Below, in pieces: positions 37,998-49,333 of a DNA stretch of 55,273 nt (position 1 is the first letter of the stretch; the number at the start of each line of letters is the position of its first letter). Both the position numbers and the translations under genes were made by a program. Below the pieces are notes generated by a model. The model made no database searches and was not told where the DNA came from. It saw only the letters and a program-made list of their open reading frames with translations. Source of the DNA: an uncultured Pelagibacteraceae bacterium (GTDB taxonomy: Bacteria > Pseudomonadota > Alphaproteobacteria > Pelagibacterales > Pelagibacteraceae); the NCBI GenBank assembly GCA_902628305.1, contig CACOMK010000004.1, positions 1-55,273 of the forward strand, given 5' to 3'.

Positions 37998-38581
37998 TGT
38001 AAAGAACTTATGTATTCCTTAATTTTTTTTACAGGTAAACCCATAATTGTATCTTCGTCTCCCTCTATACTTGAAAATAAATTTCTACCCTCTCCTTCTA
38101 TTTGGTAAACGTTATACGCGTAAAGCGCCTCATCAGTTATTTTAGATAAATAATCTTTTAATTCATTATCAGAAAATTTTTTCATCGTCAGGGTGGCTTT
38201 ATCAGTATAATTCCAAATCATTGATCCATTTTTTGATATGCAAACAGAACTTATTAAAAAATGTGAATTTCCATTAAGCTTCTTCAGTATTTTCATCGCA
38301 TCTTCTCTATTTTTTGGCTTCGATATTAATTCACCATTCAAATCTATCACGCTATCCGCTCCCAATACTATTTTATCATTTTTTTTAATACTAACTTTGT
38401 TTGCCTTTAATTCAGCCAAATTTTTTGAAATTAATTCTGGACTAGCTTTTTCTCTTAGCAAGCTCAATTTAACAATATCTTCATCTACATTCGATGGTTC
38501 AACAGAGCTCTCTATATTATTATTATCTAATATTTTTTTTCTAACTTTACTTTTAGATGCAAGAATAATTTTACTTGGCAT
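37994..38581 (-). CDS. maf: Maf-family nucleoside triphosphate pyrophosphatase
   Basis: Maf proteins hydrolyse non-canonical or m7G/UTP/dTTP nucleotides. The 195-residue protein has 'IILASKSKVRKKIL' (usually LAS.S..R..LL), 'VLGADSVIDLNGELISKP', 'AYNVYQIEGEG', and 'GDEDTIMGLPV'. It overlaps the ppsR end by 11 bases and leads into aroE. Confidence 0.95.
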   Translation of the reverse strand: MPSKIILASKSKVRKKILDNNNIESSVEPSNVDEDIVKLSLLREKASPELISKNLAELKANKVSIKKNDKIVLGADSVIDLNGELISKPKNREDAMKILKKLNGNSHFLISSVCISKNGSMIWNYTDKATLTMKKFSDNELKDYLSKITDEALYAYNVYQIEGEGRNLFSSIEGDEDTIMGLPVKKIKEYISSLQ

Positions 38582-39398
38582 TATTTAAATATATTTCATG
38601 AATTTTAATAATGGATGCTGCAGTCTCCTCAACAGACTTTCTCGTTACATCAATTGATGGCCATTTATATTTTTGAAATGTCTTTTTGGCATTTTGTACC
38701 TCTTTTTTTATATTCTCTAAATTTGTATATTTAATGTTCTCTACTTCCCTTAAAGAATTCATTCTATTTTTTCTCAAATCAGCTAATCTTTCTGGTTCTG
38801 TACTTAAACCAACCACACAAGTCATTTGAGGATTTTTCTTAAGAGTTTCTGGCAGTGAATTTTCGTTAACTAGTGGGATATTTGAGGTTTTGAAGCCTTT
38901 GTTTGCCAGATAAATTGAGGTTGGTGTTTTGCTCGTTCTACTTACGCCTATGAGAATAATATCTGATTTGTCAATTTCATTTAATAGATTTCCATCGTCA
39001 TGGTTCATTGTAAATTGGATTGCTTCAATTCTATCATAGTATTCCTCGTTCAACATGTGTTGGCCACTTGGCTCATGGGTTGCTTTTTGATTTAATATTT
39101 TCGAAAAATTTAAAATTAAATTTCCCAAAACACCAAAACATGGAATACTTTTATCTTCGCTAACATTTGCTAAATATTTAGCTAAGCTGTTGTCCACAAT
39201 TGTATATAAAATTATTGAATTAGTGTTTTTTTTTGCGTCTTCTAAAATTTTTAGAATTTGATTTTCTGTCCTTGTAAAAGAATACGAGTGAACCTTGTAT
39301 TCTATGTTTAGAAATTGTGCTTTAAGAGCCAAAAATATTCTATCTAGAGTTTCGCCAGTTGAGTCGGATATTAAATATATTTGATATGTATTTTTCAT
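38571..39398 (-). CDS. ppsR: Pyruvate,phosphate dikinase / PEP synthetase regulatory kinase-pyrophosphorylase (DUF299)
   Basis: This 275-residue protein of the DUF299 family controls PPDK or PEP synthetase by ADP-dependent phosphorylation and Pi-dependent dephosphorylation. Landmarks are 'IYLISDSTGETLDRIFLAL', the P-loop-like 'ILIGVSRTSKTPTSIYLA', 'NIPLVNENSLPETL', 'LRKNRMNSL' and 'IDVTRKSVEETAASI'. It is the first gene left of the presumed oriC and points away from it. Confidence 0.96.
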   Translation of the reverse strand: MKNTYQIYLISDSTGETLDRIFLALKAQFLNIEYKVHSYSFTRTENQILKILEDAKKNTNSIILYTIVDNSLAKYLANVSEDKSIPCFGVLGNLILNFSKILNQKATHEPSGQHMLNEEYYDRIEAIQFTMNHDDGNLLNEIDKSDIILIGVSRTSKTPTSIYLANKGFKTSNIPLVNENSLPETLKKNPQMTCVVGLSTEPERLADLRKNRMNSLREVENIKYTNLENIKKEVQNAKKTFQKYKWPSIDVTRKSVEETAASIIKIHEIYLNNAK

Positions 39399-39406
39399 GA
39401 ATAAAT

Positions 39407-39415
39407 TGTTAATAA
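39407..39415 (-). promoter_or_regulatory. DnaA-box-like site (one mismatch)
   Basis: On the minus strand this reads TTATTAACA, one mismatch from TTATNCACA. The same variant occurs in inverted orientation at 39483-39491. Confidence 0.4.
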
Positions 39416-39482
39416 ATTTGTATTATTTTAAATAAATATCACAATTCATAATTTCTAAAATAAAGCTTGTAAAACTAGGTTT

Positions 39483-39491
39483 TTATTAACA
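39483..39491 (+). promoter_or_regulatory. DnaA-box-like site (one mismatch)
   Basis: TTATTAACA, one mismatch from TTATNCACA; the inverted partner is at 39407-39415. Confidence 0.4.
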
Positions 39492-39586
39492 ATAATAATA
39501 AATAAGATAAAACAATCCACAAAAAATCAATATTAGCTAAAAAGCTTCATTTTAAACAATTTTAGAAACCAAACATGTTGGTAAAA

Positions 39587-39595
39587 TGTGAATAT
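39587..39595 (-). promoter_or_regulatory. DnaA-box-like site (one mismatch)
   Basis: On the minus strand this reads ATATTCACA, one mismatch at the first base of TTATNCACA. It faces the perfect box at 39620-39628. Confidence 0.5.
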
Positions 39596-39619
39596 AATGT
39601 TTATAAAAAATAATCACCT

Positions 39620-39628
39620 TTATTCACA
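39620..39628 (+). promoter_or_regulatory. Perfect DnaA box
   Basis: TTATTCACA matches the DnaA consensus TTATNCACA exactly, 40 bases upstream of hemE in the presumed oriC. Confidence 0.7.
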
Positions 39629-39667
39629 GGATATATTACAACTACAATAATTAATAATACTTAATTT

Positions 39668-40669
39668 ATGAAACCGTTACATAAAATAATAATTGAAAAA
39701 GATACCTCGTTCAATCCTATATGGATAATGAGACAAGCAGGAAGGTATCTCCCAGAATTTAGAGAAATAAGAAAAAAAAATACTAATTTTATTGAACTGT
39801 GTTTAAATGAAAACTTATCATCAGAAATAACCTTACAACCTTTAAAAAGATTTAATTTAGACGCTGCAATAATATTTTCAGATATATTAATGTTACCATA
39901 TGGATTAGGTCAAAATGTGAAGTTTGAAAAAGATTTTGGTCCAAAGTTAGGAAAATTAGATTTAAATGAAATTTTAAAGATTGATGAAAGTCATTTCGTA
40001 AAAAAAATTAATCGTGTGTATAATGCAATTAAAATAGTTAGCTCAAACCCAATTTTAGATAATAAAAATATGATTGGATTTGTCGGTGCTCCATGGACGT
40101 TACTAGTCTACATGATTAATCAGCAATCACCTAAAAAAAATTTAAAAAAAGATTTCTTTAATGATAAATTTTTAACAAACAAAATTTTACTAATTATTGA
40201 AAAATTTTTAAAAGTGCATATTAAAAATCAAATCCAAAGTGGAGCAAATATAATTCAAATCTTTGATAGTTGGGCGGGTCTAATCGATGAAAAAGATTTA
40301 CCAGAATATATCTATGTTCCAACTTTAAATTTAGTAAATTATGTTAAATCTTTAAATGTGCCGGTGATTTGTTTTCCGAGAGAAATAAAAAATTATAAAG
40401 AGTTTTGTGATTTTGTTAAACCTGACGTAATTAGTATTGATTATAATGTTAATCCAAAAAAGATTTTGAAAGAAATAAAAATACCTGTACAAGGTGGTTT
40501 AGACCCAAAAATTTTATTAAATGATAAGGAAACATTAAAAAAAGAAGCTACAAAATATCTCGATATTTTTAAAGATCATCCATATATATTTAACTTAGGA
40601 CATGGGGTGTTGCCACAAACAGACCCTAACATGTTTGATTATCTGGTAAAAACAGTGAAAAATTATTAA
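39668..40669 (+). CDS. hemE: Uroporphyrinogen decarboxylase
   Basis: HemE decarboxylates uroporphyrinogen III to coproporphyrinogen III. The 333-residue protein has the substrate-binding 'PIWIMRQAGRYLPEFREIR', in part, 'AAIIFSDILMLPYGLG' with the catalytic Asp, 'GFVGAPWTLLVYMI', 'IQIFDSWAGLI' and 'FNLGHGVLPQTDP'. It is the first gene right of the presumed origin and starts the hemE-hemH-hemG run. Confidence 0.98.
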   Translation: MKPLHKIIIEKDTSFNPIWIMRQAGRYLPEFREIRKKNTNFIELCLNENLSSEITLQPLKRFNLDAAIIFSDILMLPYGLGQNVKFEKDFGPKLGKLDLNEILKIDESHFVKKINRVYNAIKIVSSNPILDNKNMIGFVGAPWTLLVYMINQQSPKKNLKKDFFNDKFLTNKILLIIEKFLKVHIKNQIQSGANIIQIFDSWAGLIDEKDLPEYIYVPTLNLVNYVKSLNVPVICFPREIKNYKEFCDFVKPDVISIDYNVNPKKILKEIKIPVQGGLDPKILLNDKETLKKEATKYLDIFKDHPYIFNLGHGVLPQTDPNMFDYLVKTVKNY

Positions 40670-42329: not shown

Positions 42330-42383
42330 ATAAGGTTAAAAAACCCCAATTTTAGTCATTTTTTTACTACCTTACTAACTGTC

Positions 42384-42413
42384 TTGTAATACTTAAAAGA
42401 GTATATATATTAA
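42384..42413 (+). promoter_or_regulatory. Possible promoter before rho
   Basis: In the 118-base hemG-rho spacer, TTGTAA (42384-42389) and TATTAA (42408-42413) are spaced by 18 bases and could form a -35/-10 pair. The rest of the spacer shows no convincing structure. In this AT-rich DNA such matches are easy to find by chance. Confidence 0.3.
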
Positions 42414-42447
42414 GTTAAATTGGTAAGTCCTTATCATAAAAAAAATC

Positions 42448-48689: not shown

Positions 48690-49333
48690 TGGATCAGGAA
48701 ATTTTAAATTTTTATTCTAGAATCAACCACTTAAATGTTTCACGTGAAACATTTTTGGACTTTGAAAACTATATATCGATGATTCTTGAAAAAAATAAAA
48801 AAATCAACATAATCAGTCAAAAAACAGCATCAAAACAGACCATAATTGACCGTCATATATTAGATTCTGCACAAATTATTGATTTTGTTGACTTAAATAG
48901 CAATACAACCACAGATATAGGTTCAGGAGGTGGCATGCCCGGGATAATAGTGGCAATTATGTTAAAAAATATGAAAAATACTATGAATGTACACCTTTAT
49001 GAAAAAAGCTACCATAAAAGCCATTTTTTAAGAGAAGTTTCAGAAAAATTAAATTTAAATACAAAGATTTTTCAAAAAAATATTTTTGAAATAAAAAATT
49101 TAGAAACTGGAACGATAATGTCGAGAGCTTTCAAACCAATGCCAGTTGTTTTAGATTTGGTGTATAAAAATTTTTCAAAATATAAAAATTTAATTTTTTT
49201 TATGGGGAAAAATGGAAAAAAAATTTTTGAAAATTCAAAAAAAAAATGGGACTTAGATTATATAGAAAAAAAAAGTTTAACAAATGGAGACTCATTTTTA
49301 ATAAATATTAAAAAATTTAAAAAAAAAAATTAA
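48689..49333 (+). CDS. rsmG: 16S rRNA (guanine-N7) methyltransferase
   Basis: RsmG (GidB) methylates G527 of 16S rRNA using SAM. The 214-residue protein has 'NIISQKTASKQTIIDRHILDS', in part, the SAM motif 'DIGSGGGMPGIIVAI' and 'TIMSRAFKPM'. Its early codons (Asn-Val-Ser-Arg-Glu-Thr) also carry the parS site. The C-terminus is Lys/Asn-rich and diverged. Confidence 0.96.
   Translation: MDQEILNFYSRINHLNVSRETFLDFENYISMILEKNKKINIISQKTASKQTIIDRHILDSAQIIDFVDLNSNTTTDIGSGGGMPGIIVAIMLKNMKNTMNVHLYEKSYHKSHFLREVSEKLNLNTKIFQKNIFEIKNLETGTIMSRAFKPMPVVLDLVYKNFSKYKNLIFFMGKNGKKIFENSKKKWDLDYIEKKSLTNGDSFLINIKKFKKKN
48736..48751. promoter_or_regulatory. parS centromere site inside rsmG
   Basis: TGTTTCACGTGAAACA is a perfect 16-bp palindrome identical to the canonical ParB-binding parS sequence. 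It lies within the rsmG coding region, about 600 bases before parA and 9 kb from the presumed oriC. I saw no second perfect copy when reading the window. Confidence 0.95.

What the first reader, a model, noticed from the sequence alone, without database searches (positions are those of the whole stretch)
39399..39667. Candidate oriC with a set of DnaA boxes
A 269-base AT-rich gap lies between ppsR and hemE, where gene blocks run away in both directions, as at known alphaproteobacterial origins. It contains a perfect DnaA box at 39620, near matches at 39587 (opposite strand), 39483 and 39407 (an inverted pair of TTATTAACA), and a weak CAATCCACA at 39513. If real, SAR11 initiates from a very small origin with few strong boxes.
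Basis: partly seen in the sequence, partly recalled or inferred. Interest (0 to 1): 0.55.

Follow-up and report, generated by a model that had tools for sequence, protein, structure and literature searches.

The report
SAR11 chromosome replication origin (oriC)
The short AT-rich gap between ppsR and hemE is very probably where a SAR11 ocean bacterium starts copying its chromosome: it sits at the usual origin site of its class, is unusually small, and carries a conserved three-base repeat next to the DnaA box where the strands probably open.

Summary
The 269-base gap lies between ppsR (COG1806/DUF299) and hemE, the pair that flanks the Caulobacter and Rickettsia origins. It is 261-284 bases long in 108 of 108 sequences with both genes (102 distinct) and more conserved than third codon positions beside it. 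The box at 39620 is exact in 91 of 102. Averaged over five sampled complete relatives, strand asymmetry is highest at the gap or 5% of the genome from it. A parS site lies 7-10 kb away in 8 of 8 genomes.

New here: directly 3' of that box is a trio-like repeat, an A every third base at 39635-39647, five of five in 101 of 102 sequences. It stays, in the same register, in a sister family without ppsR (28 of 28 loci, four of the five positions) and in a genus whose hemE moved away (7 of 7, five of five). It resembles the DnaA-trio strand-opening module, but the constrained base is the third, not the middle one, so this window fails the published trio rule. CtrA, IHF and GANTC sites are absent here. 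A new variant at a known kind of site; DnaA binding and opening are inferred.

The parts
39399..39667 (.). whole origin gap between ppsR and hemE
   Evidence: 261-284 bases in 108 of 108 sequences with both genes; mean pairwise identity 0.783 over 102 distinct sequences against 0.651 (hemE) and 0.614 (ppsR) at third codon positions
38571..39398 (-). ppsR (COG1806/DUF299 family), left flank
39668..40669 (+). hemE (uroporphyrinogen decarboxylase), right flank
39407..39415 (-). weak DnaA-box-like TTATTAACA
   Evidence: exact in 68 of 102 distinct sequences; arm of a perfect 12-base inverted repeat
39483..39491 (+). weak DnaA-box-like TTATTAACA
   Evidence: exact in 83 of 102, at most 1 mismatch to TTATNCACA in 96 of 102
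39513..39521 (+). weak box CAATCCACA, 2 mismatches
   Evidence: ATCCACA in the corresponding 5-base bin in 74 of 102; this column block aligns unevenly
39587..39595 (-). near-consensus box ATATTCACA
   Evidence: 1 mismatch in 73 of 102
39598..39606 (-). near-consensus box TTATAAACA
   Evidence: 1 mismatch in 83 of 102
39610..39618 (+). possible degenerate tandem box (ATAATCACC; 3 mismatches here)
   Evidence: 2 mismatches in 38, 3 in 50 of 102; conserved block but weak as a box
39620..39628 (+). main DnaA box TTATTCACA
   Evidence: exact in 91 of 102, at most 1 mismatch in 99 of 102
39629..39632 (+). 4-base spacer GGAT between box and repeat
   Evidence: GG follows the ACA in 28 of 28 sister-family loci, which were anchored on ACAGG
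39633..39647 (-). trio-like repeat: plus strand ATA TTA CAA CTA CAA; the opposite strand would be the one bound by DnaA
   Evidence: A at 39635/38/41/44/47 all five in 101 of 102; top of 504 scanned windows; same register in the sister family and in genus g2
39648..39659 (.). further in-phase A (39650, 53, 56, 59), possible extension of the unwinding element
   Evidence: A 0.98, 0.79, 0.86, 0.67 in 102 sequences; fades outside the genus
48736..48751 (.). parS, perfect TGTTTCACGTGAAACA (consensus recalled)
   Evidence: a parS with 0 or 1 mismatch 7.1-9.6 kb from hemE in 8 of 8 genomes

Best explanation
The gap is the chromosome's replication origin. DnaA binds the strong box at 39620, helped by weaker boxes on both strands to its left, and from there extends as a filament into the AT-rich DNA on the hemE side, gripping one strand of a three-base repeat (39633-39647 and possibly on to 39659). 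This opens the duplex just before the hemE start codon, where helicase is loaded. Shown by comparison: location, conservation, box positions, the register of the repeat, strand asymmetry and a nearby parS. Inferred: DnaA binding, which strand is held, opening, helicase loading, and that the left boxes help.
For: hemE/COG1806 flanks as in Caulobacter and Rickettsia; of 20 alphaproteobacterial ppsR loci read out of 68 genomes with a match (window and G121 among the 68), 19 have hemE within 1.5 kb upstream. Gap length and sequence conserved. Boxes conserved. Free origin scan averaged over 5 complete genomes: leading-strand coding fraction (0.62) and GC asymmetry (+0.047, +0.048) highest at the gap and +5%. 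parS 7.1-9.6 kb away in 8 of 8 genomes. Strict box-plus-repeat pattern: 32 hits in 121 genomes, all 32 lying 19-28 bases before the hemE match, none for the reversed pattern. Repeat kept in 28 of 28 loci of a family in whose genomes no ppsR was found and in 7 of 7 loci where ppsR now faces rho and not hemE. The SAR11 DnaA matches B. subtilis DnaA over residues 20-463 of 472, with the arginine finger R264 kept and V where B. subtilis has the ssDNA-binding I190 (roles of both residues in PMC8287927).
Against: No binding, melting or read-depth data. The published trio rule (three or more consecutive trios with A in the middle) is not met in this window (two in a row) and is met in phase in only 18 of 102 genus sequences, 22 in any phase. 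In seven loci of other Pelagibacteraceae genera a single-sequence scan found the element at this place in only 1, and all five phase A are present in only 3; alignment is the main support there. Skew is mixed within 100 kb of the gap; singly, coding fraction peaks at -10% in G125 (0.66 against 0.65 at the gap) and third-position skew goes slightly the wrong way in G133. One other gap (before rho) is about as conserved, 0.822 against 0.840 in 7 loci. The gap is not the least stable stretch of the window. A promoter-like match overlaps box and repeat.
Confidence: 0.9

Rival explanations
1. The gap is the origin, but the three-base repeat is not a DnaA strand-capture element: it is kept for DNA flexibility, helicase loading or hemE transcription, and opening relies on AT-richness alone.
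For: The most constrained base is the third of each trio (on the box strand an A), not the middle one as in B. subtilis and H. pylori; the strict rule is met in phase in only 18 of 102.
Against: Spacing from the box is fixed (first trio starts 5 bases after it) and the phase is shared with the sister family, 5 of whose 28 copies contain CTACTACTA; it is the best of 504 scanned windows. Hem-gene transcription cannot explain its presence in genus g2.
Confidence: 0.3
2. The conservation reflects only a divergent promoter region for ppsR and hemE, and the origin is elsewhere.
For: A sigma-70-like match TTCACA-17-AATAAT (39623-39651, 10 of 12) overlaps box and repeat.
Against: The number of promoter-like sites equals chance (4 against 3.9). 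The element stays between ppsR and rho in genus g2 and between maf and hemE in the sister family. Strand asymmetry and parS point to this place.
Confidence: 0.04
3. The origin lies elsewhere, for instance beside dnaA, as in many bacteria outside the class.
For: dnaA lies on another contig (G000:C5); the genome is a 41-contig draft, 70% complete, so its own skew cannot be ordered. Boxes around dnaA were not compared among relatives.
Against: In the held part of this genome no two exact boxes lie within 450 bases of each other except 39620 and 40015 (395 apart); five complete relatives put the average asymmetry switch at the gap or 5% from it.
Confidence: 0.03

Closest known systems
hemE/COG1806-type origin of Alphaproteobacteria (Caulobacter crescentus Cori; Rickettsia prowazekii oriC)
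   Same: Same flanking genes, AT-rich gap with DnaA boxes (PMC1914354, passages and table seen).
   Different: Shorter (269 against 404 and 384 bases); no CtrA TTAA-N7-TTAA, IHF or GANTC site in this window; boxes follow TTATTCACA/TTATTAACA, and TGATCCACA is in 0 of 102 (that G-box form is recalled).
Basal unwinding system: DnaA box, spacer, DnaA-trios (B. subtilis, H. pylori and others; PMC8287927, PMC8235120)
   Same: Box, 4-base spacer, then a period-3 repeat on the 3' side of the box, about 5 units.
   Different: Constraint sits on the third base (NTA or NAA on the box strand) and not on the middle T; trios 3 and 5 lack the middle T in most genus members (0.19 and 0.13 T).
Wolbachia/Ehrlichia origins beside hemE with a changed neighbour (PMC1914354)
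   Same: One flank gene replaced while the origin stays beside hemE.
   Different: In the SAR11 sister family the new neighbour is maf (8 of 8 loci); in one SAR11 genus hemE is the one that left and rho is the neighbour (7 of 7).

Membership tests
hemE/COG1806-type alphaproteobacterial oriC (criteria as in PMC1914354) | adjacent to hemE and/or COG1806 | tested here: met
   family names by recall, see parts
hemE/COG1806-type alphaproteobacterial oriC (criteria as in PMC1914354) | DnaA boxes in the gap above chance | tested here: met
   1 exact and 4 one-mismatch sites, P about 0.001 for at most 1 mismatch; not significant for at most 2
hemE/COG1806-type alphaproteobacterial oriC (criteria as in PMC1914354) | AT content above genome average | tested here: met
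   17.5% G+C against 21-39% in 2-kb stretches of the window; genome mean not computed
hemE/COG1806-type alphaproteobacterial oriC (criteria as in PMC1914354) | shift in strand skew at the site | tested here: met
   on average in five complete relatives, sampled at 14-31% of each genome, to within about 5% of the genome; own genome is a draft, not testable
hemE/COG1806-type alphaproteobacterial oriC (criteria as in PMC1914354) | higher similarity among close relatives than other DNA | tested here: met
   against third codon positions and two of three other gaps; the gap before rho is about as conserved in 7 loci
hemE/COG1806-type alphaproteobacterial oriC (criteria as in PMC1914354) | CtrA sites (not in all accepted members: zero in some, PMC1914354) | tested here: not met
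   none in the window; TTAA-N7-TTAA in 23 of 102 relatives, chance level not computed
[quoted passage not shown]
   none in the window; 11 of 102 relatives
Basal unwinding system (rule of PMC8287927) | DnaA box with at most 2 mismatches | tested here: met
   TTATTCACA at 39620; one mismatch to the E. coli TTATCCACA that the rule uses
Basal unwinding system (rule of PMC8287927) | trios within 16 bases of the box | tested here: met
   4-base spacer to the repeat
Basal unwinding system (rule of PMC8287927) | at least three consecutive 3'-NAN-5' trios | tested here: not met
   two in a row in the window; in phase 18 of 102 genus, 2 of 7 other genera, 18 of 28 sister family. Hence 'works like', not filed as a member
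Basal unwinding system (rule of PMC8287927) | DnaA-dependent strand separation | not testable with these tools
   needs a biochemical assay

The most novel reading that the evidence does not exclude
SAR11 bacteria open their origin with a variant DnaA-trio code whose constrained base is shifted by one (third instead of middle), held in register with a box that decays in some genera (in genus g2 four of seven box places have lost the final ACA), and without a conserved CtrA, IHF or GANTC control site in the gap. On this reading the trio repeat, more than the box, carries the origin's identity across the order.
Probability: 0.35. Interest if true: 0.65.

Novelty: new variant of a known kind. Interest (0 to 1): 0.45.

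Why it matters
SAR11 is among the most abundant cells in the sea (recalled), yet the paper searches run here listed no title or abstract opening that describes its oriC; databases such as DoriC may already hold a predicted one and could not be checked. A fixed, alignable origin marker lets growth-rate methods that compare read depth at origin and terminus be anchored in SAR11 draft genomes. It also offers a natural test of the DnaA-trio rule: an element kept through two opposite changes of neighbour, with its strongest constraint on a base the present model calls less conserved.

Tried and rejected
Genome-wide exact box density: no enrichment (38 against 51 reversed control). Duplex stability: the least stable stretches of the gap are within the least stable 0.4% of window stretches at five window sizes, but other stretches of the window are less stable. 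Rejected as decisive.

Single-sequence scan for box plus trios: strong in the genus (same place in 10 of 10 non-redundant; at most 3 of 200 shuffles as good in 8 of 10), weak elsewhere: same place in 1 of 7 other-genus loci, 3 of 8 sister-family loci, 3 of 7 loci of genus g2. In 20 other alphaproteobacteria a strict scan gave 2 loci with hits, one of them inside hemE, so the element is not shown outside the order.

In one search the counts for genus g2 are wrong for 3 of 7 rows, anchored on another CTA; replace them. In the sister family the first phase position (offset 7) is mostly T, so only 6 of 28 have five of five; offsets 10, 13, 16, 19 are A in 28 of 28. Those 28 reduce to 6 non-redundant rows.

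Other intergenic gaps as controls: identity 0.561 (17 loci), 0.699 (11), 0.822 (7, before rho), against 0.817-0.848 for the origin gap in the same loci.

Loss of ppsR from the sister family: 0 of 28 genomes match (8 of them at least 90% complete). The tool warns that an empty answer alone shows nothing; the same query matched 68 of 115 genomes of the class.

Full report
What was checked. The window is contig C4 of a 913-kb, 41-contig draft genome, 69.7% complete. The gap 39399-39667 and its boxes are as described, plus one missed box at 39598-39606. Five sites with at most one mismatch to TTATNCACA is more than chance (mean 0.76, P about 0.001), while the count with two mismatches is not significant.

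Relatives. A scan with HemE returned 80 named loci (118 relatives found, the best 80 kept); a second search of 121 genomes of the genus found hemE in 100 and gave 30 loci. Of these, 108 sequences including the window carry both genes (2 of the 80, L006 and L054, show no ppsR; the window's own copies L001 and L082 were left out), 102 of them distinct. The gap is 261-284 bases in all 108. Its mean pairwise identity is 0.783, against third codon positions of 0.651 in hemE and 0.614 in ppsR; best conserved are the ppsR end (0.865) and 39579-39638 (0.825-0.869). Two of three other short gaps nearby are less conserved; the one before rho is about equal in 7 loci.

Is it the origin? The same gene pair flanks the experimentally located Caulobacter origin and the Rickettsia origin (PMC1914354, passages read). 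In 20 ppsR loci that I picked from other alphaproteobacterial genera (of 68 genomes matched), hemE lies within 1.5 kb upstream in 19. Whole-genome skew could not be run on the draft. Instead I sampled five single-contig relatives (G012, G082, G131, G133, G125; 14-31% of each) and rotated the assumed origin round each circle in 5% steps. Averaged over the five, leading-strand coding fraction is highest at the gap and +5% (0.62), as are GC asymmetry (+0.047, +0.048) and the third-position contrast, which allows for transcription (+0.038, +0.045). Singly, GC asymmetry peaks within 5% of the gap in five of five, coding fraction in four of five (G125 at -10%), the third-position contrast in four of five (G133 does not). 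Within 100 kb of the gap the signal is mixed (three genomes). A parS sequence (consensus recalled) with 0 or 1 mismatch lies 7.1-9.6 kb from hemE in 8 of 8 genomes examined, and in the window at 48736-48751; five of the eight also have one or two 2-mismatch matches elsewhere, and the reversed control matches only in two genomes. In the held part of the own genome no two exact boxes lie within 450 bases of each other, except the pair 39620 and 40015.

The repeat. Counting from the end of the 39620 box, bases 7, 10, 13, 16 and 19 are A: all five in 101 of 102 genus sequences, and 90, 95, 85, 100 and 90% in 20 non-redundant sequences that include seven from other genera. Scanning the 28-row family alignment for any five-triplet phase signal of A or T, this is the best of 504 windows (contrast 0.64; mean 0, sd 0.19). 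A strict pattern of box plus repeat occurs 32 times in 121 genomes, each time 19-28 bases before the hemE match in the same orientation, and never as the reversed control. It is absent from 68 of the 100 genomes with a hemE match; I infer that this is because it demands an exact box and two exact TA steps, and some matches are contig ends.

Two natural experiments. In the sister family f2 no ppsR was found in 28 of 28 genomes; in the 8 loci read with 2.5 kb upstream, maf, the gene that lies beyond ppsR in the window, faces hemE (8 of 8, 36-40% identity). All 28 loci have ACAGG before hemE, then A at offsets 10, 13, 16 and 19 (28 of 28), the same phase as in SAR11 proper; 5 of 28 contain CTACTACTA. 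They are closely related: 6 non-redundant rows. In genus g2, ppsR was found in 7 of 8 genomes and faces rho in 7 of 7, with no hemE in those loci; a distant HemE relative (30-37% identity) sits elsewhere in 7 of 8. The repeat has A in all five third positions in 7 of 7, while the box place keeps ACA in only 3 of 7. The element therefore follows neither gene but the site.

How it probably works. In B. subtilis and H. pylori a DnaA box is followed by trios, written 5'-CTA-3' on the strand complementary to the one DnaA holds, with a highly conserved middle T (PMC8287927, sections 13 and 14 part 1 and passages; PMC8235120, passages). SAR11 has the box, a 4-base spacer and about five triplets in what I take to be the same position and orientation. 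But the middle T is kept only in triplets 1, 2 and 4 (100, 95, 98%) and not in 3 and 5 (19, 13%), while the third-position A is near invariant. The window therefore fails the published rule. I read it as a variant trio element (about 0.6), with a different use of the repeat as the main rival. SAR11 DnaA matches solved DnaA structures (best 8btg_A, E 1.1e-94), keeps the arginine finger (R264) and has V at the ssDNA-binding position I190.

What is missing. No CtrA, IHF or GANTC site is in the window's gap; GANTC is in 1 of 102 sequences although SAR11 is reported to have a CcrM homologue (PMC3973325, passages; sites). Chance rates for these short motifs were not computed.

Literature. Searches for Pelagibacter, SAR11 or Pelagibacterales with oriC, origin of replication, replication origin or DnaA box (one of 13 papers not listed) showed nothing, by title or abstract opening, on the SAR11 oriC itself. 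Of the listed papers I opened passages of seven (PMC7858055, PMC2731167, PMC2031905, PMC3973325, PMC9516812, PMC7852909 and, from another search, PMC10225481); PMC9516812 places a Pelagibacter ori by a GC-skew script only.

Verdict. An origin of known kind, unusually short, with an order-wide variant of the strand-opening element: confidence 0.9 for origin, about 0.6 for the trio mechanism.

Noticed in passing
window 48736-48751: Perfect parS palindrome TGTTTCACGTGAAACA; one (two in G135) near-perfect copy close to the origin in 8 of 8 genomes.
   Followed up: yes
window 40015-40023: A second exact box, TTATACACA on the minus strand, lies inside hemE about 350 bases from its start; conservation not tested.
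   Followed up: no
L122, L123, L275-L281 (genus g2): hemE is gone from beside ppsR, which now faces rho in 7 of 7 loci; a distant HemE relative (30-37% identity) sits elsewhere in 7 of 8 genomes.
   Followed up: partly
L124-L131, L282-L301 (family f2): ppsR was found in 0 of 28 genomes and maf faces hemE (8 of 8 read); an AT-rich run such as TATATATA lies between the repeat and the hemE start codon.
   Followed up: partly
window 42330-42447: The gap before rho is about as conserved as the origin gap in the 7 loci compared; possibly a rho leader.
   Followed up: no
window 39399-39667 and relatives: GANTC (CcrM site) occurs in only 1 of 102 origin gaps; whether this is avoidance was not tested.
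   Followed up: no
whole organism: A paper reports that Pelagibacter ubique has no dif/Xer system (PMC2731167, passage), so a dif site could not be used to place the terminus.
   Followed up: no
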